Source of the DNA: an uncultured Gammaproteobacteria bacterium
GTDB lineage: Bacteria; Pseudomonadota; Gammaproteobacteria; Arenicellales; JAANXG01
Direction of reading: 5' to 3'
Assembly: GCA_947259175.1 (NCBI GenBank)
Contig: CAMYKW010000035.1
Span: 1-33,890, forward strand
DNA length: 33,890 nucleotides
Each line of letters starts with the position of its first letter. Position 1 is the first letter of the stretch. Made by a program: the position numbers and the translations under genes. Below the pieces are notes generated by a model. The model was given only the letters and a program-made list of their open reading frames with translations, made no database searches and was not told where the DNA came from. This document shows, piece after piece, positions 4,778 to 33,890 of the stretch.

Positions 4778-5527
4778 TCAGATCACCTTGGCTTCGTTCT
4801 TGAGCTTGTCGACGAGCGCCTCGACGCTTTCCACGCGTACGCCGCCGCTGCGCCCCGGGGGCTCCGCGACAGTCAGGGTCTTCAGCCGCGGGCTGAGGTC
4901 CAACGCGAAATCGCCGACGGCCAGGGTTTCCAGCGGTTTTTTCTTGGCCTTCATGATATTGGGCAGCTTCACGTAGCGCGGTTCGTTAAGGCGCAGGTCG
5001 GTGGTAATCACCGCCGGCAGCGCCAGAGACAGTGTCTCCAACCCGCCATCGACCTCGCGGGTCACCGCCACCCGCTGATCGGCGAACTCGAGCTTGGATG
5101 CAAACGTGCCTTGCGGCCAGCCCAGCATGCCGGCCAGCAACTGTCCGGTCTGATTGCTGTCGTCGTCGATCGCCTGTTTGCCCATGATCACCAGTTCGGG
5201 CGATTCCTTGTTGACGATCTCGCGCAGAATCTTGGCCACGGCCAGCGGCTCCAACTGGTCTTCGGTCTCTACCAGGATGCCGCGGTCCGCGCCCATGGCC
5301 AGTGCGGTGCGGATCGTCTCCTGGCACTGCCTGACACCGATGGAAACGATGATGACTTCTTCCGCCTGCCCCGCTTCCTGCAGGCGCACCGCCTCCTCGA
5401 CGGCAATCTCATCGAACGGGTTCATCGACATCTTCACGTTGGCGGTGTCGACGCCGGACCCGTCCTTCTTGACGCGCACCTTGACGTTGTAATCCACCAC
5501 GCGTTTGACCGGCACCAGTATTTTCAT
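4778..5527 (-). CDS. etfB: Electron transfer flavoprotein subunit beta
   Basis: 249 residues. [20 protein letters not shown] is the characteristic opening of the AMP-binding beta subunit. The family signature spans about 157-200 and includes [24 protein letters not shown] and the recognition-loop region [11 protein letters not shown], which docks on acyl-CoA dehydrogenases. [14 protein letters not shown] at 36-49 is also standard. It is the first of the etfB-etfA-dehydrogenase trio. It lies 90 bases after the CaiB-type gene and could be read from that upstream message. A GGAG sits too far from the ATG (about 14 bases) to be an ideal ribosome site. This is a classical group II ETF used in fatty and amino acid oxidation, not the nitrogen-fixation FixAB type with FixCX, which are absent here. 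Confidence 0.97.
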
Positions 5528-5617
5528 TGTTCGTTTGCGTACTCCAGGGGATGAAAGATTATTACGCCGAGTGTCGCCAGATGCTACCCGCTCCCTGATG
5601 CACGCGCAAACGTCCTC

Positions 5618-6766
5618 TCAGATAACACCGTCGCTGCGCAGCGCAGTGATTTCCTCGCTGCTGTAGCCGAGCTCTCCGAGGATTTGCGCACTGTGTTCCC
5701 CGTGGGCAGGGGCCGGGGCCCGCGCCTCGAAGCTGAATTCACTGAACCGGATCGGGAAGGCGAACCGCGGCAAACCATCCGCGGACGTGTGGATCATGTC
5801 CCGGGCGGCGAACTGCGGGTGGTCGAGCGCCTCGTCCAGGGTCAGCACCGGCGAAAAACAGCAATCGGCGGCCTCTAGCCGCGCCACCCAATGCGCCTGG
5901 GTCTGCGACTTGAGCAAGTCCCGCAACTCGCTGCGTACCTGCTCACGTTGCGTGGCATCGCCGTGGTAGGCGCCGATCCAGTGTTCTCGGTCCAGGGCGG
6001 TACACAATCGGCGCCAGAATTTTTCCTCCAGGGACGCCACCGCTACATAGCGCCCGTCTGCGGTCTCGTAGATCCCGTACCACGGCAGCCCGCCGCTGAG
6101 CATATCCTCGCCCCGGGGGGCTACCGCGCCGTACTGGTGGCGGGCCGACAACGGGATTACCGCGTGGGCCAGCGTGCAGTCGCTCATAGCGACATCGACG
6201 TAGCGTCCATGGCCACTGCGTTGCGCATCGATCAATGCCGCCAGTATACCCATCACCGCGCTGAGGCTGCCGCCCAACAGGTCGGCCATTTGTATATTCG
6301 GGATCACCGGCGGCCCGCCACGCACTCCGATCTGGTCGATGACGCCGGCGTAGCTCAGATAATTGAGGTCATGGCCGGCCCGATCCCGGAATGGTCCGGT
6401 CTGGCCGTAACCGCTCATCGCGCAATACACGATTTTAGGATTGCGCGGTTGGATGTCGTCATAAGCGATGTGCAGTCGGTCCACGGCGCCGGGGCGGAAG
6501 CCCTCGATGACGACGTCGGCGGAATCCGCAAGGCACAGGAACAACTCGCGCCCGGCGGCCTGCTTGAGGTCTACGGCGAGGGAACGTTTGTTGCGGTTCA
6601 CGCTGCCGTAAAAGCTCCCCATGCCGCGGGCGTAGTCCCCCTGCCCGGTGTCCTCCACCTTGATCACGTCCGCGCCCATATCGGCGAGATGCAGGCTGCA
6701 CATCGGCCCGGGCAACAGGCGCGTCAGATCCAGCACCCGGATGCCGGCCAGCGGCTTATGCCGCAT
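5618..6766 (-). CDS. CaiB/BaiF family protein, alpha-methylacyl-CoA racemase type
   Basis: 382 residues, the usual length for alpha-methylacyl-CoA racemase. PLAGIRVLDLTRLLPGPMCS is the class opening, followed by DMGADVIKVED and NRNKRSLAVDLK for CoA binding. The racemase catalytic pair is present in the right spacing: His132 in GHDLNYLSYAG and Asp162 in NIQMADLLGGS, matching the His126/Asp156 pair of the mycobacterial enzyme. It would interconvert 2R and 2S methyl-branched acyl-CoAs so that stereospecific acyl-CoA dehydrogenases can act. This fits the neighbours: ETF and a dehydrogenase follow, and an acetoacetyl-CoA synthetase precedes by 91 bases. A CoA-transferase role is possible for the superfamily, but the His/Asp pair favours racemase. 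Confidence 0.9.
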   Translation of the reverse strand: MRHKPLAGIRVLDLTRLLPGPMCSLHLADMGADVIKVEDTGQGDYARGMGSFYGSVNRNKRSLAVDLKQAAGRELFLCLADSADVVIEGFRPGAVDRLHIAYDDIQPRNPKIVYCAMSGYGQTGPFRDRAGHDLNYLSYAGVIDQIGVRGGPPVIPNIQMADLLGGSLSAVMGILAALIDAQRSGHGRYVDVAMSDCTLAHAVIPLSARHQYGAVAPRGEDMLSGGLPWYGIYETADGRYVAVASLEEKFWRRLCTALDREHWIGAYHGDATQREQVRSELRDLLKSQTQAHWVARLEAADCCFSPVLTLDEALDHPQFAARDMIHTSADGLPRFAFPIRFSEFSFEARAPAPAHGEHSAQILGELGYSSEEITALRSDGVI

Positions 6767-25826: not shown

Positions 25827-27041
25827 TCACAGTTCGCGCAAGCCCTCCGCGGGTTCGATGCGAGATGCGCGCATCCCACCCAGGAAAGAAGCCAACAGCG
25901 CAGCGCCGAGTGTGATACCGATCGCGATACCGTAGTGCTGCGGCAATAACCGGCACAGCTTGGCGCCCGCTTCCAGACCCTCGGCGAACAGGCGGTTCAA
26001 TCCCTGTTCCACGCCGACGTAGATGAGCACCGCCAACATCCAGCCGAACACCGCCGTAAATAATGCCTGCAACACCGGAAACCAGACGATACCGGCGGTA
26101 TAAAAACCAACCAGCCGCAGCACGCTCAATTCACGGCGTTTCCGGTCAACGTTCGCCCAGATACTCGCCCCCAAGGACAGCGAAAATCCGATCATCGCGA
26201 CCAGGGCCACCACCCAGAAGGTCACGGTCAGATTACGGTCCAGTTTCTGCACCAGCTCGATTTCCGCCTGCCGGCTCCTCACGTCCAGACCTTGTTTGAC
26301 CAGGGCGTTTTGCAGCGCATTCACGTCGTATATGGAGCGCGCATACAGCCGAAATCCGCTGAAGGTTCTCTCGCTGTCCGGCGATGACCCGCGCCAGCCC
26401 AATTCCGGTACAGCGCGGCCGTCGCGAAAATCCTCCGTCGCCACTAACAGGTCCAAGCTTACAAACGCACCCTCCCGGGGGAACGCACCCGGTTCCGCAA
26501 CCGCGAGCACCTTCAACGGCAGGTGGACGCGCTCCTGGCGTCCCGCGTAAACGCGCGCCAGGCTGCCATCGAGCTCGCCGCCGACCCCGATCTGCAACTT
26601 CTCCGCCGCCCGCTTTGACACGACCACCTCGTTCAATCGACTGGGCCTGGGTGTGCCGCGCCCCAGCAACGGGTCGCCGTTTCCGGTCGGAATCAGCTCT
26701 ACGGATACGATCTTCGCCGGGCGCGCTTTGCGATTGTACAACTCCATCGTCGCCGCGATAGTGCGTGTACGCGGCATGACGAATGCCACATCCGGCCGCC
26801 GCCGCATGTCCTCGAACCAGTCGCTGCGAAAATTTCCGCTCCCGACGGTGCGGATTTCGAGATTGCGCGGATCCTGCACCAGGCGGTCCACCATGTTGCT
26901 CACGACCCCGAATTTCAAACCGAACAACACCATCATCGGCGCCAGTATCGCCGCGAGCGCCAAAATAAAACACAGCGACATCTGCCACTCGTGCAGATAA
27001 TCGCGTAGCGCTAATTGGATGGTGTGAAAAAAGCCGGACAT
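25827..27041 (-). CDS. FtsX-type ABC transporter permease, TagS-like candidate
   Basis: 404 residues with the MacB/FtsX/LolC topology: a first helix (about 22-45), a large periplasmic domain (50-268) starting NMVDRLVQDPRNLEIRTVGSGNF, then three helices (270-293, 313-345, 370-390). The C-terminal RASRIEPAEGLREL is the usual end of these permeases. Such proteins often act as mechanotransmitters rather than pores. The neighbouring gene 15 bases upstream encodes its ATPase. With the VWA gene before that, the set resembles TagS/TagT and the periplasmic part of PpkA, which feed envelope signals into the H1 type VI secretion system of Pseudomonas aeruginosa. LolCDE-like lipoprotein transport is an alternative, but no LolE partner is present. 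Confidence 0.88.
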   Translation of the reverse strand: MSGFFHTIQLALRDYLHEWQMSLCFILALAAILAPMMVLFGLKFGVVSNMVDRLVQDPRNLEIRTVGSGNFRSDWFEDMRRRPDVAFVMPRTRTIAATMELYNRKARPAKIVSVELIPTGNGDPLLGRGTPRPSRLNEVVVSKRAAEKLQIGVGGELDGSLARVYAGRQERVHLPLKVLAVAEPGAFPREGAFVSLDLLVATEDFRDGRAVPELGWRGSSPDSERTFSGFRLYARSIYDVNALQNALVKQGLDVRSRQAEIELVQKLDRNLTVTFWVVALVAMIGFSLSLGASIWANVDRKRRELSVLRLVGFYTAGIVWFPVLQALFTAVFGWMLAVLIYVGVEQGLNRLFAEGLEAGAKLCRLLPQHYGIAIGITLGAALLASFLGGMRASRIEPAEGLREL

Positions 27042-27056
27042 GGGCGCGTTACACTT

Positions 27057-27782
27057 TTATCCTTGAAACACCGAGTTGATGACGCCTTTCTTTTTCGACG
27101 GGCGGAAAATCTGCCGCACCGGCCGCATGCCCAATTGCACGACGAACTGGGTATTGTGGCTGGCGACGATCACCGTGGTTCCGAGTTCTTCCGCCAAGCC
27201 GAGAAATACGCCCATGATCTTCTTCGCCTGAACAGGATCTACCGCCGCGGTCGGCTCGTCCGCCAACACGATGGGAGGCCGGTGCGCCAGGGCGCGGGCG
27301 ATGGCAACGCGCTGCCGTTCGCCGACCGACAATATCCCCGGCAACTTGTTCAATTGCCGCCTGATTCCGAGGGTCTTTGCCAGCGCCCTCACGGTGCCGT
27401 CATCGGGCATCGACAAAATTTGCCGCGACAGGTTGATGTTGTCCCACACCGTCAAAAACGGCAGCAGGCCACCGGTTTGCAGCACGTACCCCATGTACTG
27501 CTTGCGTAAATCGCTCAGCACATTCCATCTGCTGGTCTCCCAGGCAAGCCACACATCCAGCGGTACTTTGCCGTCCGGGGCAAACACGAATTCGTTGACC
27601 GAACTCGGGCGCAGCACCATGACCAGCATGTCCAGCAGCGTACTCTTGCCACAACCGCTTTCGCCGACCAGCGCCACTTTCTCGCCCGCGGCGATGTCCA
27701 ACTGCGGTACGACGAGGCAGAAATTCGCACCCTCGGCAATGCGCAGTTTTCTAACATCACGGAGTTTGAAAACCAGTGACAC
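27057..27782 (-). CDS. ABC transporter ATP-binding protein, TagT/LolD-like
   Basis: 241 residues from the GTG at 27782. An ATG at 27857 would overlap the preceding gene by 44 bases and add residues unlike the family. Walker A is GESGCGKST (40-48), the Q-loop is Gln102 in YVLQTGG, the signature is LSVGERQRVA (151-160) with Glu in place of the commoner Gly-Gln, Walker B is IVLADEP (171-177), and the H-switch is SHN (208-210). This is the MacB/LolD/FtsE group that energises FtsX-type permeases, and the permease gene follows directly. A 25-residue insert after the Walker A helix (RPSSVNEFVFAPDGKVPLDVW) distinguishes it from plain LolD. Confidence 0.9.
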   Translation of the reverse strand: MSLVFKLRDVRKLRIAEGANFCLVVPQLDIAAGEKVALVGESGCGKSTLLDMLVMVLRPSSVNEFVFAPDGKVPLDVWLAWETSRWNVLSDLRKQYMGYVLQTGGLLPFLTVWDNINLSRQILSMPDDGTVRALAKTLGIRRQLNKLPGILSVGERQRVAIARALAHRPPIVLADEPTAAVDPVQAKKIMGVFLGLAEELGTTVIVASHNTQFVVQLGMRPVRQIFRPSKKKGVINSVFQG

Positions 27783-27813
27783 GGTTAGGTCAAGTATCAA
27801 CAGACGTCGGCAG

Positions 27814-29838
27814 TCAGGGGAGTCGGGCCAACGCGATCGGGAACACCGAATCTCCACCTATGGAACCGCCGTCCAGCGAGGTCCACAGATCGGTGTTGTC
27901 GTGAATCGCCTGGTAATAATTGATCTTGGCTTCCAGTTGGTGCACGAATTCCAGCTGCCGTTTCGCGGACCATTCCTCCCAGATATCGAGGGAGATACTC
28001 AGCAGCTCGCTGGTATAGGGCAGACCCTCGATGTATTCGCGCATGTAACCCAGGTCGGTGAGATTGGCCCCCGCCGCTCCGGTTGCGCGGGTACTGGCGC
28101 TCACCGCGGCAGGATCGCGGCTCACTGAAGCGGCGAGACTCTTGAGATCATCGAGAAAATCCTTCGGCGAAAGCAACCCCTCCTCGGCGGTGTCGAGGAC
28201 CTTCTTCAACACGCTCTGCAGGTCGCTCAGTTGATTGCGGGTGAGCAACACGTGCACACCCAGGGCCTCGCGCTGCGGATTCTCGAACTCGCGATCCACC
28301 AGCCATGCGTTGAACACCTCCGGAACCTGTTCGCCACGCAGTTTCTTCAGGTAACGCATACGCATGGCATAGCCCAGCTTCTCGACCTTCTTTTGAAATT
28401 GCGACAATCGTTGCTGCGGACTCACCGGTTGATCGGTCTTGTACTCGACATCCATGCTGAACTCCGGCACCGGCACCGGCAGGATGCCCTGCGACGTATC
28501 CAGAACCTGCTGCGTAATTTGGCCGGCCAGTGTTTTCAACACGCTGCCAAACTCGTCCACGGAACCCATGGTCACCGGGTAATGAAAGTGACCGATTCCC
28601 GGGTAGCTCGTCAGGCGCTGGTATTGCACGCTCGCCGCCGCGTGGTCACCGAACCCTTGCGGTGTCTGCAGGTGAAGCACCCAGATCGCGATGCCCAGGT
28701 CCTGTGCAAGCTGGCGCAACGATTCCGCGTCCAAACCCGTCGCGCCCAGCGGGTCATGGGCCGGCCGCGCACCCGCATCGGTAATCAATACGATGTAGCG
28801 GGCGTCGTAACCGCTCCACTCGGTATTCTCAATAGCGCCCTTCACCCCGGCAAACGCATCTTCAATGAAATCCCTGCTGGAGACTTCGGCGGGTTCGATG
28901 GACTTCACCAGTTCGAAGAAGGCCTGTGGATCCCGGCTCTGTTCGAGGGTCGCATAGCGGCGCGTGACATAATCCAACGCCGGTACCACATCGATGTTGT
29001 CGCGATAAGCAAACACACCGAAACTGACGTCACCAAGCAGCTCCGAACTCGCCAACGAGTCGTAGATCTTGCGAATCGCCTCGCGGGTCGCATCGATGTA
29101 CGGTCCCATGGAAATCGTGGCGTCGCTGACAAACACAATTCCCGATCGATAACGCTTGGGTTGCGCGTTGTTGGTTTCATCGCCGGGTGGTTTGCCGGCA
29201 TCCGCAACTTTGTCGACGACCAGCGGTACCGTGGCCACCTCGAGCACCAGTGCCCGCTCGCCGCCGAGGAAGGCATCCTCATGATCGAGAATCGGTACCA
29301 GGTAGAAATCCTCGCGAATATCGGTATGCGACTTCGGCTGGATGGCCACTACCGGCGAGTCGGTTGACACCTCACCGGATTCTGCTTGCTCGCGCAAACG
29401 CTGATATGCCCCCGTGTCGTAACTGTCGATCAGAGACTTCAAGGAATCCCGGTCCTTGAAAAGCAAAACCCGGTTACGGTTCACGGGTTCCTTGAAGGTA
29501 ACGGTGAGCGCCTGTTTCCACTCGATGAGCTGGTCCTGCTTGATCCACCCGTTGATTCCGCCGCGGCTGTCATCCCCCACCAGCACCCAGTCTCCTTCCC
29601 GGGCGTAGACGTAGAACACCGAGAACGGGGTCACCGGTTTTGCACCCTCGGCGGATGCGACATCCGCGGCCCAATGCAGCTTGGCTTGTGGCCGGGAAAT
29701 GACTCTCTGATAAAGCGACTTTTTCCCCGCCATCAACATCGGCTTGTTGGCGGAAAACGCAATATCAGGCGCCGACCAGATCACCGCCAACAAAGCGCCC
29801 CAGGCATACCCAATTGGTCGAAATTTACGGCATTTCAT
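27814..29838 (-). CDS. Exported SH3-like plus von Willebrand A protein resembling the PpkA periplasmic region
   Basis: 674 residues. The signal peptide is MKCRKFRPIGYAWGALLAVIWSAPDIAFSA (1-30). An SH3-like domain (about 40-110: SLYQRVISRPQAKL, VFYVYAREGDWVLVG, GWIKQDQLIEWKQ) is followed by a linker region and a VWA domain (about 232-460). The metal-binding MIDAS site is DATIS (Asp239, Thr241, Ser243), with a further Asp354 in VLITDAGA. FVSDATISMGPYIDATREAI is close to my memory of the C-terminal VWA of the type VI kinase PpkA. No kinase domain is present here. A helical C-terminal region (470-674) contains a disordered Ala/Thr stretch. It sits between a Sel1-type gene and an ABC ATPase gene and probably works with them as an envelope sensor. 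Confidence 0.85.
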   Translation of the reverse strand: MKCRKFRPIGYAWGALLAVIWSAPDIAFSANKPMLMAGKKSLYQRVISRPQAKLHWAADVASAEGAKPVTPFSVFYVYAREGDWVLVGDDSRGGINGWIKQDQLIEWKQALTVTFKEPVNRNRVLLFKDRDSLKSLIDSYDTGAYQRLREQAESGEVSTDSPVVAIQPKSHTDIREDFYLVPILDHEDAFLGGERALVLEVATVPLVVDKVADAGKPPGDETNNAQPKRYRSGIVFVSDATISMGPYIDATREAIRKIYDSLASSELLGDVSFGVFAYRDNIDVVPALDYVTRRYATLEQSRDPQAFFELVKSIEPAEVSSRDFIEDAFAGVKGAIENTEWSGYDARYIVLITDAGARPAHDPLGATGLDAESLRQLAQDLGIAIWVLHLQTPQGFGDHAAASVQYQRLTSYPGIGHFHYPVTMGSVDEFGSVLKTLAGQITQQVLDTSQGILPVPVPEFSMDVEYKTDQPVSPQQRLSQFQKKVEKLGYAMRMRYLKKLRGEQVPEVFNAWLVDREFENPQREALGVHVLLTRNQLSDLQSVLKKVLDTAEEGLLSPKDFLDDLKSLAASVSRDPAAVSASTRATGAAGANLTDLGYMREYIEGLPYTSELLSISLDIWEEWSAKRQLEFVHQLEAKINYYQAIHDNTDLWTSLDGGSIGGDSVFPIALARLP

Positions 29839-29859
29839 ACGCTTGCAATTCAGTTGGTG

Positions 29860-30498
29860 CTAATCGCGCCACCGTTTCAACAGCAGCAAGGCGTTCTCGT
29901 CTCCCTGCATCGCCTGTGCGCTCACCACCTGCTTGAGTTCGCCAAGGTGATCGTGCGCGGATGGATCGCCTGCGGCGGCGGCTCGCGAATACCACTTGTA
30001 CGCCTGCGCGGGGTCGGCACGGCCGACGATGCTGTAGGCGGTGGTGTGGTACTTTGGATCGTATATCCTGCCCAAAGCCAGGGCGGAAGCCGCGTGACCG
30101 CGACGTGCATTGAAAAACAGAAGCAGATGCGCATCCGCGTGTTGCCCGGCGGCGGTGAACTCGCGGCTTTTTGCGTGCAGGTCGTCCTCGGTGAGCGGCG
30201 ACGACGAATCCCTCATTGCCGCAATGATCTCCCGCGCCGCGTCGCCCTCCCGCGGGACGGAACGGATTACCGGTTCAGGCATCGGCTGTTGGCTTGGGAT
30301 CACCGCCGCAAGGGGTGGCGCCTGGCTGCGTGCCGCCTGTTCGGCGTCATCGCCAAGAATGTAAAACCATATGCCGATCATGCCGAGCACCAACACCACG
30401 GCGACCAACCACAGCGGCGAGGGACGTCTTTTCTCGGGCGGCCAGTCGCTGGATTCCGCGGCTTGCTTGCGCTCCGGCATCAGCAGCGGACCGTTCAT
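29860..30498 (-). CDS. Membrane-anchored Sel1/TPR-type repeat protein
   Basis: 212 residues from the ATG at 30498, which has AAGGGG 9 bases upstream. A longer frame from 30576 adds only basic low-complexity residues and no ribosome site. A proline-rich cytoplasmic tail (MNGPLLMPERKQ, then PPEKRRPSP) leads into one membrane helix (about 29-48: LWLVAVVLVLGMIGIWFYIL), then a linker and a helical repeat domain (about 95-212). It contains RGHAASALALGRIYDP and AQAYKWYSRAAAAGDPSAHDHL, which are Sel1-like repeats. Such repeats bind protein partners. The gene starts the unit, with the VWA gene 21 bases downstream, so the periplasmic repeats may contact the VWA protein. No enzyme activity is expected. 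Confidence 0.8.
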   Translation of the reverse strand: MNGPLLMPERKQAAESSDWPPEKRRPSPLWLVAVVLVLGMIGIWFYILGDDAEQAARSQAPPLAAVIPSQQPMPEPVIRSVPREGDAAREIIAAMRDSSSPLTEDDLHAKSREFTAAGQHADAHLLLFFNARRGHAASALALGRIYDPKYHTTAYSIVGRADPAQAYKWYSRAAAAGDPSAHDHLGELKQVVSAQAMQGDENALLLLKRWRD

Positions 30499-30666
30499 GC
30501 GCGCACCCCTTGCGCCGCGTCCGCCGTCGAACTTTTCTCGAGCCACAGCGATCCGCACCCTGTCGCGGTGTCGCATCGATCGTTCAATTGCCGGTAACTT
30601 ATCATGGCGCCGGATCGATCCTATCAGTTATTTGCGCTGGGCGGACCGCAGCCGCAGCCCAACGAA

Positions 30667-31251
30667 TCAGGCCGCTACACGGGAACGGTCGCGAACCGCG
30701 CGCGTTGTGACCCTCTCCACCAGCGCAACGACGAGATCGTAAGCGGAATTGTCGTTTGCGGTGATTTCCAACGTATCGAACTCGCCCCGCTTATCGCTGA
30801 AATAAACGCTGTAGTATCCGCTTGAAAAATACTCGATTTCCAGATCGATGTCATGAGTGAGCCATTGCGCCTGGATGCCGCCCTGAACTGTCGGCGCCAA
30901 TGCGGGAAGCGGCGTTTGCGGCTCCATCGCGTTGGCGAGAAACCGCAGAACGTCCGCCGCGACACACACGCCAGGGAACTGCCGCCAGGTTTGATTTTCA
31001 TCGTGATCAGAATCAAGTATCGCTTCCAGTCTGCGGGCAATCGGCTCCAGCCATGCGGGAGGATCGCCTTTGAACGCGACAAACAGATCCGGTCCGATCC
31101 TTTCCAGGTGCTTATTCCCGAGTCGCGCTTTAACACCGGCGACATTCCTCGATTCCAGGACTTTGTTGGCGTGGGTAACGACGCGGCTCTGGTTTGCCAG
31201 GCAATCGTCCACGCTGTGAACGTTATGTGGAAGCGGCGCTACGGCATTCAT
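30667..31251 (-). CDS. Protein of unknown function coupled to the TIGR04255-type gene
   Basis: 194 residues from the ATG at 31251. This start overlaps the preceding stop as ATGA and has GGAGGT four bases upstream, so it is preferred to the ATG at 31263. I do not recognise the family. The sequence is soluble with no signal or membrane helix. It alternates helix and strand: ESRNVAGVKARLGNKHLERIGPD (35-57 region), a Trp/Pro stretch (PPAWLEPIARRLEAIL), then a beta-rich end with WLTHDIDLEIEYFSSGYYSVYF and DKRGEFDTLEITANDNSAYDLV. The last part reads like an adaptor that presents paired strands. Tight coupling to its neighbour implies that the two products are made in fixed ratio and probably interact. 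Confidence 0.75.
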   Translation of the reverse strand: MNAVAPLPHNVHSVDDCLANQSRVVTHANKVLESRNVAGVKARLGNKHLERIGPDLFVAFKGDPPAWLEPIARRLEAILDSDHDENQTWRQFPGVCVAADVLRFLANAMEPQTPLPALAPTVQGGIQAQWLTHDIDLEIEYFSSGYYSVYFSDKRGEFDTLEITANDNSAYDLVVALVERVTTRAVRDRSRVAA

Positions 31252-32075
31252 TTTGACCTCCATGCTCTATGCATGTCTTCAGACGTGATGGACTTAAAGC
31301 CGCGGACGATCATTTCTCTGCCACGATCGAAAGATTTGAACGCGCCGTCGACGCCGATGCCGTCCGGCCGGCTGCGGGCGGTCAAGGTCAAGACGAAGAT
31401 CGGAACATCGTGCTCGGGTATCAACGCCGGTTGCACCGACGCGTACAACCTGCCCAGCGGTTCATCGCTGTCGTCGTAGTAGATCCATTGACTGGAGAAG
31501 CGGCAATTCTCCGGGGCCGGGAGAAAGTCGTCGCTGTACTCCGACTTCCACATCGTAATGACCTGGTCGAGCTTGGAGTGATTTTCCCAGACATCGCCGG
31601 GCATGATGTGGTTGGTGTAAGCCACCTCGCATTGGTTGGGTTTGAGTTCGCCAAGTCGCTCCCGGGTCAGGAATCCCATGAACCGCTCGATTTCACTCTG
31701 GAACTCGGCGCGAATCACCTCGTAGCGGGGATAGATCTGCGCGTCGTCCGCCTTGCGCCAGGTGTGAATGAAGTGATTCTGTTGCACTTGTATCAGTTGC
31801 GCGCGGTGCTGATCCAGGAACCAGCACCGGGGGGATGGAAAGGATTGCGTGACGTCGATGGCGGGCGCCTGCTTTGGCCGTGAGCCGAAGGTTTCAAACA
31901 CCGCGTCGATGGGGGGGTGTTGCTCGGTGTAGGGATACGATTCGCGGAACTCACTCCACAGCAAGCCGATTTGCGGCGTCTGCAGTCCGGGAAGCGGTTC
32001 GAATTGCAGCGCCAGCGATGTCTCCACGACCGGCGGATCGTCGAAATCCGGCAGCGTGCGCTTGGCGTCGACCAT
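31248..32075 (-). CDS. TIGR04255-family protein (sporadically distributed, function unknown)
   Basis: 275 residues. DFDDPPVVETSLALQFEPLPGL (10-31) and IGLLWSEFRESYPYTEQHPP (37-56) match the opening of the family, as do the central strand pair RCWFLDQHRAQLIQVQQNHFIHTWRK and YPRYEVIRAEFQSEIERF. The family appears patchily among bacteria and often beside defence, toxin-antitoxin or mobile genes. No catalytic motif is known to me and none stands out here. The C-terminal VPIFVLTLTARSRP and SFDRGREMIVRGFKSITSEDMHRAW complete the family pattern. It starts 13 bases after the RHH-like gene and ends with an ATGA overlap into the unknown gene, so all three form one operon. The family assignment rests on reading alone. 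Confidence 0.75.
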   Translation of the reverse strand: MVDAKRTLPDFDDPPVVETSLALQFEPLPGLQTPQIGLLWSEFRESYPYTEQHPPIDAVFETFGSRPKQAPAIDVTQSFPSPRCWFLDQHRAQLIQVQQNHFIHTWRKADDAQIYPRYEVIRAEFQSEIERFMGFLTRERLGELKPNQCEVAYTNHIMPGDVWENHSKLDQVITMWKSEYSDDFLPAPENCRFSSQWIYYDDSDEPLGRLYASVQPALIPEHDVPIFVLTLTARSRPDGIGVDGAFKSFDRGREMIVRGFKSITSEDMHRAWRSK

Positions 32076-32088
32076 CGGCGGCGATCCG

Positions 32089-32283
32089 TTACCGCTTGAG
32101 TCTCTTTAACGAGCCGTCCTGTATCAACAGCTCGATCGAGCGGGTGATCAGCCGCTCCGCGGCGTCGGGCCGGGTCTTCCCGTAAAGGCCGGAAGCGACG
32201 AGACTGTCGAGGTATTGATGCACCAGCGGCGTGGTCCGGATCTTCAGCTCGGCGGTCTCCATGTCGTTGGGTTTGCGCGCCAT
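32089..32283 (-). CDS. Small ribbon-helix-helix-like protein, possible antitoxin or regulator
   Basis: 64 residues. ELKIRTTPLVHQYLDSLVASG resembles a ribbon strand (ELKIRT) followed by a helix, and GKTRPDAAERLITRSIELLI resembles the second helix of Arc/MetJ-type dimers, where the turn carries a G-x-T/S-x-x-x-(A/V)-A pattern. The products are DNA-binding homodimers that often repress their own operon or act as antitoxins. There is no ribosome site before the ATG at 32283, and the likely -10 box is only about 15-20 bases upstream, so the message may be nearly leaderless. Three phased 11-base steps beginning ATTA lie at 32302-32327, in the place expected for its own operator. It opens the three-gene operon. 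Confidence 0.65.
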   Translation of the reverse strand: MARKPNDMETAELKIRTTPLVHQYLDSLVASGLYGKTRPDAAERLITRSIELLIQDGSLKRLKR

Positions 32284-32301
32284 GGGCGCGAATATAGCAT
32301 A

Positions 32302-32327
32302 ATTAGCCCCTTATTAGGCCCTAATTA
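32302..32327 (-). promoter_or_regulatory. Phased 11-base repeats upstream of the RHH gene
   Basis: On the plus strand ATTAGCCCCTT is followed at once by ATTAGGCCCTA and then by ATTAATTACC. The first two agree at 8 of 11 positions, and all start ATTA one helical turn apart. The centre also forms the near palindrome TTAGGGCCTAA. Tandem short boxes on one face of DNA are the usual target of ribbon-helix-helix dimers, here with the -10 region alongside. Confidence 0.45.
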
Positions 32328-32377
32328 ATTACCAAAACTAGCAAAAAGTCATTTCCCACAGGAACCCATCGCATCAC

Positions 32378-32431
32378 GTGGGAGCGCTTTGCAAGCGCGA
32401 TCGTTTAATTCGCGGTCGAAAACCGCCCACC
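32378..32431. repeat. Inverted REP pair (BIME-like)
   Basis: The first element (32378-32402) starts GTGGGAGCGC, has a 6-base stem GCGCTT/AAGCGC over TGC, and ends CGCGATC, the classical Pseudomonas-type REP. The second (32407-32431), read on the other strand, starts GGTGGGCGGT, has a stem CGGT/ACCG, and ends CGCGAATT. They face each other across 4 bases. They may arrest transcription, protect 3' ends, or mark a past REP-transposase event. Confidence 0.65.
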
Positions 32432-32622
32432 AGGAATCAAATGAAAACGAAGCGCATTTTTGAGCGGGATCGCTTTCACAAATAGGTTTGCTTCAACTTA
32501 CGTTAATAACAAGAAACAATGTGTCCATGATCTTTTCTTGCAGTATCGATGATGGAGTCGTTCATAAGTCGCTCAATGACGCCGATAAAGAGAGCCTAGC
32601 AAAACGCGATGTAAGCGGATCA

Positions 32623-33537
32623 TCAAACAACTTGCGCAGAAGATTCCGAGGACAAATCCGGAACGCACGCCACAATCTGCTTGCGAACCCACAAATAAGC
32701 ATCTGAAGTTTTCCGATCGGGCTTGACAATACTGGTATGGGATCCCCTTACGTGTCGTTTCTGACTGGTGGGAATCCAAGGCCCGGTACTTAGCTTGTCT
32801 ACCAACATATCCCGATCCGCCGTGACAACAAAAATGGGGAGTTGACGAATAGTTTTCCCGGACTTCGTCATTGTCCGCATTGCAAAAGGGTTGATGTGAT
32901 TTGCAAATGTCTCATGGATTTGATTGAGATAGTCATTATACGGGTACAGCACCCTCGCATCCTTGGACAGCAAACGCGTAAGCCATGGTACCTTTCTCGA
33001 CCCGAGTTGCGGTGTCGCCATCAAGAACAGCCCTTTTATGTTATCAAGCGCTTCTTCCTCGGTGCGCAACAAATATTGAATTGCACCCATATGCATGACA
33101 CCACCCATGCTATGCCCGATTAAAAAAATATGTCTATAATCTTTTTCATCGCGAATGACATGTGCAAGCGTTTGCGCTTGATCAGGAACCTTGGGTGTTT
33201 TACGAAAGAATCTGGAACGCGCGGTGGCATATTCGTACATTCCGACGTCGACATAAGGTAATTCTTCTTGCAGAAACTGCGGAAACTTTTGCCACGTGTC
33301 AAATCGACTTCCCGATAATCCATGAACAAAAATAACCAACGTTTGTTTGCCCTTGTCTTGGTAATCGTTCTGATAGATAACAAGCGGCTCCTTGCTGTCA
33401 ATTTCTATCGGTTCCATGCCAGTGCCATCGGATTTCTGGTTGGAAGTTGATTGCACACCGTATTGTTTTGATATCGTTGAAACAGCCATTCGGTGTGGCG
33501 GCTTTCGCGTATACTGGTTGCGCAATGTCACTTTCAT
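32623..33537 (-). CDS. Alpha/beta hydrolase (lipase/esterase-like)
   Basis: 304 residues. IFVHGLSGSRFDTW (69-82) forms the oxyanion region, and the nucleophile elbow is GHSMGG with Ser143. The acid is probably Asp243 in TADRDMLV and the base His267 in GSHTSI, giving a full Ser-Asp-His triad. ATPQLGSRKVPWLTRLL (174-190) is the helix after the nucleophile seen in PGAP1- and lipase-like proteins that act on membrane lipids or large esters. There is no signal peptide, and the first 40 residues are polar and basic. Codon use and composition are AT-rich relative to the core of the window, which suggests transfer. AAGG lies 8 bases before the ATG. ATG at residue 17 is a weaker alternative. The substrate is unknown. 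Confidence 0.85.
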   Translation of the reverse strand: MKVTLRNQYTRKPPHRMAVSTISKQYGVQSTSNQKSDGTGMEPIEIDSKEPLVIYQNDYQDKGKQTLVIFVHGLSGSRFDTWQKFPQFLQEELPYVDVGMYEYATARSRFFRKTPKVPDQAQTLAHVIRDEKDYRHIFLIGHSMGGVMHMGAIQYLLRTEEEALDNIKGLFLMATPQLGSRKVPWLTRLLSKDARVLYPYNDYLNQIHETFANHINPFAMRTMTKSGKTIRQLPIFVVTADRDMLVDKLSTGPWIPTSQKRHVRGSHTSIVKPDRKTSDAYLWVRKQIVACVPDLSSESSAQVV

Positions 33538-33890
33538 CTCGTTAACCTTGAATTGACCAGCGATAGTTCGACAGCATTTTCAATCAGTGAGTCACTCGTC
33601 GTAGTCTATCATTCTCTCAATATACGATTCTTACATGCGGTATCCTACAAATGATCTACACGCTGATAGCCTATTGGTCTAATTGGTCGACGCAGACAAT
33701 TATGGGTGCAATCATTAGGTGTCGAGATGGAACAACGATAGAGTCAGCGACTGATCGTTACTCAGATCAGCATTCATTTTGTCTCTGACCTGAATGGCAC
33801 TTACTTAAGGGATAAGCGACTGATATAGGAAACGAATAAAGGCTGGTTCGGGTGATAAGATGTGAGTTACCCAACTAACAACTATCAACC
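33538..33890. other. AT-rich end of window without a visible gene, 353 bases
   Basis: No reading frame here looks real. TATATT near 33620, read on the minus strand, could be a -10 box for the hydrolase gene, but no -35 box sits at good spacing. A 10-base direct repeat AGCGACTGAT occurs at 33746-33755 and 33815-33824. I see no RNA gene, terminator or insertion sequence end. Confidence 0.5.

What the first reader, a model, noticed from the sequence alone, without database searches (positions are those of the whole stretch)
30667..32327. Three-gene RHH / TIGR04255 / unknown-protein unit behind phased operator-like repeats
A small ribbon-helix-helix-like protein, a TIGR04255-type protein and an unrecognised 194-residue protein are packed with a 13-base gap and an ATGA overlap. 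Phased 11-base ATTA boxes overlap the promoter area, as expected for autorepression. The unit adjoins an inverted REP pair and an AT-rich hydrolase gene. A self-regulated, sporadic operon with a DNA-binding first gene is the layout of toxin-antitoxin and phage-defence systems. The defence reading is inference.
Basis: partly seen in the sequence, partly recalled or inferred. Interest (0 to 1): 0.68.

Follow-up and report, generated by a model that had tools for sequence, protein, structure and literature searches.

The report
Mobile TIGR04255 gene cassette, one gene missing
Two of the three genes belong to a small gene cassette that recurs in distant bacteria, sometimes beside integrases or DNA-restriction genes; this copy lacks the cassette's usual third gene and has a small putative regulator in front, and a role against phages is plausible but untested.

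Summary
The three ORFs, 13-base gap, ATGA overlap and TIGR04255 assignment are real. Three 8-base boxes exactly 11 bp apart precede the first gene (0 of 1000 shuffles as good). Gene A (RHH-like by eye) had no credible relative in any search. B (TIGR04255) and C are two thirds of a recurrent cassette B-C-D whose third gene D is missing here. D lay beside a C-type gene in 14 of 14 places found in two phyla (3 of them had seeded the profile). C and D also recur as the end domain and the second gene of PADLOC's candidate defence system PDC-M32, and C-D pairs follow an AAA ATPase and a ClpP-like protease. B-C-D units occur by tyrosine integrases, after gpD of a prophage, on a plasmid and behind a type I R-M operon. 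B, C and D distances correlate (r 0.66-0.73). A PADLOC neighbourhood test was inconclusive, and no function is shown. B's weak structure model resembles guanidino kinases. Best reading: a horizontally moving conflict or defence cassette, here a B-C variant without D, possibly autorepressed by A.

The parts
32089..32283 (-). Gene A, 64 aa (possibly 57 aa from the ATG at 32262), RHH-like by sequence pattern; putative autorepressor
   Evidence: ORF; no family match at E <= 1; no credible relative found; RHH fold not tested
32298..32327 (-). Three phased 8-base boxes TAATTAGG / TAATAAGG / TAATTATG, 11 bp apart, putative operator of A
   Evidence: 0 of 1000 dinucleotide shuffles as good; the boxes overlap an imperfect inverted repeat 32300-32311 / 32316-32327
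32291..32299 (-). TGCTATATT, extended -10-like element close to the start of A
   Evidence: by eye; the -35/-10 consensus scan did not list it
31248..32075 (-). Gene B, 275 aa, TIGR04255 family
   Evidence: NCBIfam TIGR04255 E 2.9e-18, 66.6 bits, cut-off 30; model pLDDT 63, pTM 0.65
30667..31263 (-). Gene C, 198 aa (194 aa from the ATG at 31251), WDG-type domain in residues about 90-170, here with R94 where D is usual
   Evidence: PADLOC PDC-M32A C-terminus E 1.6e-6; profile of five C proteins of other loci E 4.5e-14; model pLDDT 74.8

Best explanation
B and C are a B-C remnant or variant of a horizontally moving three-gene cassette: B (TIGR04255), C (WDG-domain protein), D (a protein of mostly 130-180 aa with conserved R, S and H). 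Shown: recurrent gene order, tight coupling (4-base and other overlaps), correlated distances of the three proteins, every D found lying beside a C-type gene, and kinship of C and D with PADLOC candidate PDC-M32. Inferred: it is a conflict system (defence against phages or other mobile elements). C and D form a regulatory or sensing adaptor, and the upstream partner (B here; a type I R-M context, an AAA ATPase or a ClpP-like protease elsewhere) is the working part. In this genome D has been lost or was never acquired. A small gene A sits in front, and its product would bind the 11-bp phased boxes over its own promoter and hold the operon low. Which of B and C is toxic, if either, is not known. 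B is favoured as the effector because it also pairs with helix-turn-helix second genes, in the gene order of some toxin-antitoxin pairs (recalled).
For: B family search: 30 of 398 same-phylum genomes, own included. Of the 31 other loci fetched, 11 have B, C and D in order by profile and 2 more have B and D with a weak middle gene. D: 10 places in 9 of 249 same-phylum genomes, all 10 beside a C-type gene, 8 of the PDC-M32A subfamily and 2 in B-C-D; 2 of the 10 were seeds of the profile. D in the phylum of L002: 4 of 346 genomes, all 4 B-C-D, L002 itself a seed. A D profile from five B-C-D units alone matches the gene after the PDC-M32A-type gene in 8 of 9 such loci, E 3e-7 to 0.0019, and a C profile from the same units matches all 9 M32A-type proteins, E 2e-8 to 3e-5, and the window's C, E 4.5e-14. 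PADLOC M32A: L002 C 8.5e-8, L031 C 1.2e-8. Mantel correlations B-C 0.66 (20 units), B-D 0.73 and C-D 0.68 (19 units), 0 of 5000 permutations as high. hsdR-hsdM-hsdS in front of B-x-D in L176. Integrase in 5 of 31 B loci against 0 of 34 shorter control loci, Fisher 0.021; without the seed locus 4 of 30, 0.043. Phage gpD then B-C-D in L057. Partner swaps: AAA_21-C-D in L177, SDH_protease-C-D in L117.
Against: No functional datum. PADLOC scan of 140 of 245 neighbour proteins against 140 of 189 control proteins at E <= 1e-10 gave 185 against 63 models, but both draws held known defence genes (controls: PglW, PglZ, CBASS cyclase), so no enrichment is claimed. 18 of 31 B loci have no D, and 5 of these pair with HTH genes. 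Of the 5 B loci with an integrase only L056 and L058 are B-C-D units. PADLOC's own M32B model hardly sees D: L064 0.015, L002 none. One M32A-type locus (L071) has no D. Most C domains in viral contigs have neither B nor D: D in 4 of 31, B in 3 of 31, so C has uses outside the cassette. The window's C lacks the D of the WDG motif that 16 of 20 units have. Two B proteins found nothing in the phage collection.
Confidence: 0.58

Rival explanations
1. Classical type II toxin-antitoxin operon: A is the RHH antitoxin and autorepressor, B or C the toxin.
For: Small first gene, phased operator-like boxes, 13-base gap, sporadic spread; B also pairs with HTH genes in 5 of 31 loci, 4 of which seeded the model.
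Against: A was found with no other B or C, whereas B and C persist without it; no toxin family match for B or C; the unit elsewhere has B, C and D.
Confidence: 0.15
2. Accessory or control genes of DNA restriction-modification: the C-D module, with or without B, modulates type I enzymes or their expression.
For: PDC-M32A/B follow hsdM in L068 (Pfam N6_Mtase) and, by eye, in L069 and L070, with HsdS-like genes after them in L069, L070 and L072 by eye; hsdR-hsdM-hsdS directly in front of B-x-D in L176; the Crinalium plasmid B lies 3.4 kb from type I genes, though its second and third genes are not C or D by profile.
Against: Among the B-C-D units looked at, R-M genes were recognised beside L176 only (no systematic R-M search was made); the ten window proteins scanned further away and the six scanned nearby show none; the HsdS-like protein of L069 gave no Pfam match at E <= 1e-5.
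Confidence: 0.15
3. A metabolic or signalling enzyme operon: B is a guanidino-kinase-like phosphotransferase and C its regulator; mobility is incidental.
For: The first 39 rows of the structural comparison are guanidino kinases going by their titles (one, 4q2r, does not say), best Z 9.2, rmsd 3.8, 186 residues.
Against: Model confidence is low (pLDDT 63, 4 sequences); Foldseek had no E <= 1e-3; at 75% over 20 units only P15, E18, P48, Q96, Y115, Y153, N155 and F260 are conserved, no evident catalytic set; TBP also matches at Z 6.3.
Confidence: 0.07
4. Decaying insert: D lost, C motif altered, unit no longer works.
For: D not found in the genome, C has R94, the hydrolase and Sel1-like genes on either side are also variable within the family.
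Against: All three ORFs are open and tightly packed; the boxes are regular; B scores well over its cut-off.
Confidence: 0.05

Closest known systems
TIGR04255 family (NCBIfam, 'sporadTIGR04255')
   Same: B is a member over its whole length
   Different: The family model carries no function; the partner genes C and D are not part of it
PADLOC candidate system PDC-M32 (PDC-M32A + PDC-M32B)
   Same: C carries the domain found at the C-terminus of M32A; D of relatives is related to the gene that follows M32A, and one D weakly matches M32B
   Different: C is a separate gene without the M32A N-terminal region; B does not resemble that region (hhalign probability 0.2%); the window has no D
Type II toxin-antitoxin modules with RHH antitoxin
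   Same: Small first gene, phased operator-like boxes, short operon
   Different: A was not found with other B and C genes; no toxin fold or activity shown
Prophage hotspots of antiviral systems (PMC9122126, passages read)
   Same: Small variable loci between conserved phage genes; L057 B-C-D lies after gpD in a prophage that looks P2-like by eye
   Different: The published P2 hotspot is between gpA and gpQ; the site in L057 is a different one

Membership tests
TIGR04255 | Score over the curated cut-off along the whole model | tested here: met
   66.6 bits against 30; positions 2-252 of 252
B-C-D cassette (defined here) | TIGR04255 gene followed at once by a WDG-domain gene | tested here: met
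   C fits a profile of five other C proteins at E 4.5e-14 and overlaps B
B-C-D cassette (defined here) | Third gene D | tested here: not met
   No D in the own genome (16 of 23 first-look candidates were scored); best window peptide for D E 0.51, at 5493-5663
PADLOC PDC-M32 | Full-length PDC-M32A | tested here: not met
   Only profile positions 289-369 of 375 match C, E 1.6e-6
PADLOC PDC-M32 | PDC-M32B neighbour | tested here: not met
   None of the four proteins A, B, C and hydrolase matches M32B; no D-type peptide in the window
Ribbon-helix-helix (CopG/Arc) regulators | Match to an RHH family model | tested here: inconclusive
   0 families at E <= 1 in Pfam and NCBIfam; a single orphan sequence cannot build a profile
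Ribbon-helix-helix (CopG/Arc) regulators | RHH fold | not tested
Type II toxin-antitoxin | Operator repeats at the promoter of the first gene | tested here: met
   Three boxes at 11 bp, 0 of 1000 shuffles; promoter activity and binding not shown
Type II toxin-antitoxin | Toxin and neutralising antitoxin | not testable with these tools
   Needs expression assays
Guanidino kinase fold | Catalytic-domain fold | tested here: inconclusive
   Z 9.2 over 186 residues from a pLDDT 63 model
Anti-phage defence system | Enrichment near defence genes | tested here: inconclusive
   185 against 63 PADLOC models, controls also held defence systems

The most novel reading that the evidence does not exclude
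C-D is a general sensor-adaptor pair of bacterial and prophage immunity that is plugged onto interchangeable effectors: TIGR04255, a type I R-M context, AbiEii-like AAA ATPases and ClpP-like proteases. Phages carry the stand-alone C domain as a counter-part or decoy. The window shows a stage in which D is dispensed with and an RHH repressor has taken over control.
Probability: 0.25. Interest if true: 0.82.

Novelty: new variant of a known kind. Interest (0 to 1): 0.58.

Why it matters
TIGR04255 proteins carry a name that says only that they are sporadic; no paper in the searched library holds the term TIGR04255. Showing that many of them (11 to 13 of 31 here) are the first gene of a B-C-D cassette, and that C and D are shared with a defence candidate and with other effector genes, turns part of an orphan family into a testable conflict system with swappable parts. 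It also gives a simple order of tests: D, not the RHH-like gene, is the usual partner to study.

Tried and rejected
Rejected: A, B and C as one co-travelling unit, because A had no credible relative in any search.

Rejected for lack of signal: B as the N-terminal part of PDC-M32A (hhalign probability 0.2%); C and D as one family (probability 0.1%); sequence relatives of B, C or D in the PDB (best E 0.88, 0.77 and 0.11); the weak matches of C to Pfam DUF6959 (E 0.16) and PHROG 26768 (E 0.031). The fold of C stays open: best rows Med17C Z 8.1, PsiB 5.8, MotA C-domain 5.2, a range that may mean only a common arrangement.

Led nowhere: viral scan with the L082 protein and with A; viral scan with D gave only the contig already known; phage collection with two B proteins; tRNA call at 30631-30728, taken as false because Rfam listed nothing at its gathering scores in 29800-33890; paper search on R-M accessory genes and on fold terms, listings only.

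Inconclusive: PADLOC and Pfam scans of neighbours and controls. Pfam Phage_integrase came up in 3 of 140 neighbour proteins and is not among the 25 families listed for controls.

Considered: that the WDG motif of C serves contact with D and was lost with it in the window. Several stand-alone phage C domains keep the motif without D, so this is not supported.

Not seen: whole papers. PMC12429752 and PMC9122126 were read as passages only (one search found none of its terms); the others are search listings.

Full report
WHAT IS THERE. On the minus strand lie A (32089-32283, 64 aa), B (31248-32075, 275 aa) and C (30667-31263, 198 aa, or 194 aa from the ATG at 31251). A and B are 13 bases apart, and ATGA joins B and C. 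B is a TIGR04255 protein, 66.6 bits against a cut-off of 30, along the whole model. A matched nothing in Pfam, NCBIfam, PADLOC or PHROGs at E <= 1; its pattern (a strand-like start and two helices with the spacing of an RHH protein) is a judgement by eye. C matches the C-terminal part of PADLOC's PDC-M32A (E 1.6e-6, positions 289-369 of 375).

OPERATOR. In the 62 bases before A there are three 8-base boxes exactly 11 bp apart with 6 of 8 columns identical; none of 1000 dinucleotide shuffles did as well at period 11 or at periods 9 to 12. For box lengths of 9 to 11 the any-period figure is 2 to 9 of 1000, and pairs of boxes alone are not remarkable (21 to 126 of 1000). The boxes overlap an imperfect 12-nt inverted repeat. 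The consensus promoter scan listed nothing there; TGCTATATT near the start of A is an extended -10 by eye. This fits, but does not show, autorepression by A.

THE REAL NEIGHBOURHOOD OF B. The TIGR04255 model hit 30 of 398 genomes of the phylum, own included. I fetched wide flanks of the 31 other loci. Profiles for B, C and a third protein D were built from seeds and iterated on these and related loci, so E-values of members taken in during the iteration are not independent. 11 of 31 loci have B, C and D in order, overlapping or within 60 bases; 2 more (L051, L052) have B and D with a middle gene that scores E 0.5 and 0.0034; 5 have a helix-turn-helix second gene (4 of these seeded that model); 13 have other or no close second genes. 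Among 100 relatives B occurs in 5, own included, and in only 1 of 5 other genomes of the genus (35% identity); all 4 non-own hits (L082-L085) carry D, two of them with a middle gene that the C profile does not recognise.

D GOES WITH C. A D profile found 10 places in 9 of 249 genomes of the phylum. All 10 lie beside a C-type gene: 8 of the PDC-M32A subfamily (some with another N-terminus or cut by the contig end) and 2 in B-C-D; two of the ten had seeded the profile. In the phylum of L002, an Actinomycetota record, 4 of 346 genomes have D and all 4 are B-C-D, L002 itself being a seed. A check with profiles made from five B-C-D units only: the D profile matches the gene behind the M32A-type gene in 8 of 9 loci (E 3e-7 to 0.0019; L071 has none) and, more weakly, the last gene of L077 (E 0.0065); the C profile matches all 9 M32A-type proteins (E 2e-8 to 3e-5) and the window's C (E 4.5e-14). 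PADLOC's own models agree for C (L002 8.5e-8, L031 1.2e-8 to M32A) and barely for D (L064 0.015 to M32B, L002 none). D was not found in the own genome, where 16 of 23 first-look candidates were scored, and no window peptide did better than E 0.51. The window is the only B-C pair without D that I met.

COUPLING. In 20 units (window included; 6 further units, L084, L085, L051, L052, L060 and L116, were left out because C was not well recognised or B was cut), pairwise protein distances correlate: B-C 0.66, B-D 0.73, C-D 0.68, with 0 of 5000 permutations as high. Shared ancestry of hosts can add to this.

MOBILE AND DEFENCE SETTING. Tyrosine integrases lie next to or near units in L002, L086, L127, L058 and L165/L168 (Pfam confirms L168 and L127; the others were named by eye). 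A profile built from these five found an integrase in 5 of 31 B loci (409 kb; L058 is one of its seeds; only L056 and L058 of the five are B-C-D units) and in 0 of 34 control loci (262 kb, several very short); Fisher 0.021, without the seed locus 0.043. L057 holds B-C-D after Phage_GPD of a prophage that looks P2-like by eye. L086, L116 and L127 are viral contigs. L064 is a plasmid, with a MobF relaxase just before B. In L176 an hsdR-hsdM-hsdS operon precedes B-x-D on the same strand. PDC-M32A/B in L068 follow hsdM (Pfam N6_Mtase); the HsdS-like genes behind other copies were named by eye, and the one tested (L069) gave no Pfam match at 1e-5. PDC-M32 has been listed in Sinorhizobium prophages (PMC12429752, passages). 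P2 hotspots of antiviral systems are described in PMC9122126 (passages), at another site of the genome.

A NEGATIVE RESULT. 140 of 245 neighbour proteins of the 31 B loci and 140 of 189 proteins from control loci of the same genomes were scanned with PADLOC at E <= 1e-10: 185 models against 63. The neighbours include a retron- or Septu-like ATPase and reverse transcriptase, AbiEii and PDC-S01, several of them hit by many models each; the controls drew BREX-like and CBASS genes. Only the 25 most frequent families are listed, so proteins cannot be counted exactly. I do not claim enrichment.

MODULARITY. The C domain also occurs with other first genes: AAA_21 ATPase-C-D in L177, SDH_protease-C-D in L117, a TPR-like N-terminus fused to C and then D in L074, an HNH-like N-terminus fused to C in L103 (TPR and HNH by eye). 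All 31 viral loci found with C fit the profile; 4 have D and 3 have B within the fetched stretch, and 18 carry C as an ORF of 77-124 codons, five of these being near-identical contigs.

STRUCTURE. B's model is weak (pLDDT 63, 4 sequences). Foldseek gave no match at E <= 1e-3. VIA-align put guanidino kinases, going by titles, in the first 39 rows (best 9b0t_A, Z 9.2, rmsd 3.8, 186 residues) and TBP next (Z 6.3). I take this as a two-repeat alpha/beta arrangement and no more. C's model is better (mean pLDDT 74.8, above 85 in residues 101-160), with helices, a five-stranded sheet and a long last helix, and no clear relative.

MECHANISM, STEP BY STEP. Shown: gene order, coupling, patchy spread, operator-like repeats. 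Inferred: A represses the operon at the boxes; B and C act together; the cassette serves conflict between phages, plasmids and hosts; the first gene is the effector and C (with D where present) the sensing or restraining part. The window's variant lacks D, and C has R94 where 16 of 20 units have D, so it may work differently or be on the way out.

VERDICT. A real, recurrent, unnamed cassette, of which the window holds a reduced form; related by two of its parts to a listed defence candidate; function open.

Noticed in passing
window 32623-33537: AT-rich (46% G+C) alpha/beta hydrolase (DUF676, weak LmuA and phrog_1846 matches), absent from the 12 other genomes of the family searched.
   Followed up: partly
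window 25827-30576: FtsX permease, ABC ATPase, weakly vWA-like protein and Sel1-like protein in a row behind the unit; in the 12 other family genomes the Sel1-like gene has only one weak hit, in G403.
   Followed up: partly
window 30631-30728: ARAGORN tRNA-Ala (cgc) of 98 nt over the end of C, not supported by Rfam; a TTGCGCTGG/CCAGCGCAA inverted repeat (by eye) lies there.
   Followed up: partly
window 32378-32482: REP-like GTGGGAGCGCTTTGCAAGCGCGATCG, once in the window, with a degenerate inverted partner.
   Followed up: partly
L117 302-2330: ClpP-like SDH protease, C protein and D protein in a row on a viral contig.
   Followed up: partly
L177 3853-6311: AAA_21 (AbiEii-like) ATPase, C protein and D protein in a row.
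   Followed up: partly
L036, L039, L046, L063, L044: B followed by a helix-turn-helix-type protein in place of C; L039's copy (as L009) has a Pfam HTH_3 match, the others rest on a small profile.
   Followed up: partly
L103 4362-5414: C domain fused behind an HNH-like region (by eye), with a short D-like ORF after it.
   Followed up: no
L047 3373-3791: D appears split into two overlapping ORFs (93 and 46 aa).
   Followed up: no
L178 4135-6086: A 242-aa protein of similar size to B, a C protein and a 162-aa protein in the B-C-D layout; the first and third are not recognised by the B and D profiles.
   Followed up: no
L071 1450-2802: PDC-M32A-type protein with no recognisable D behind it.
   Followed up: no
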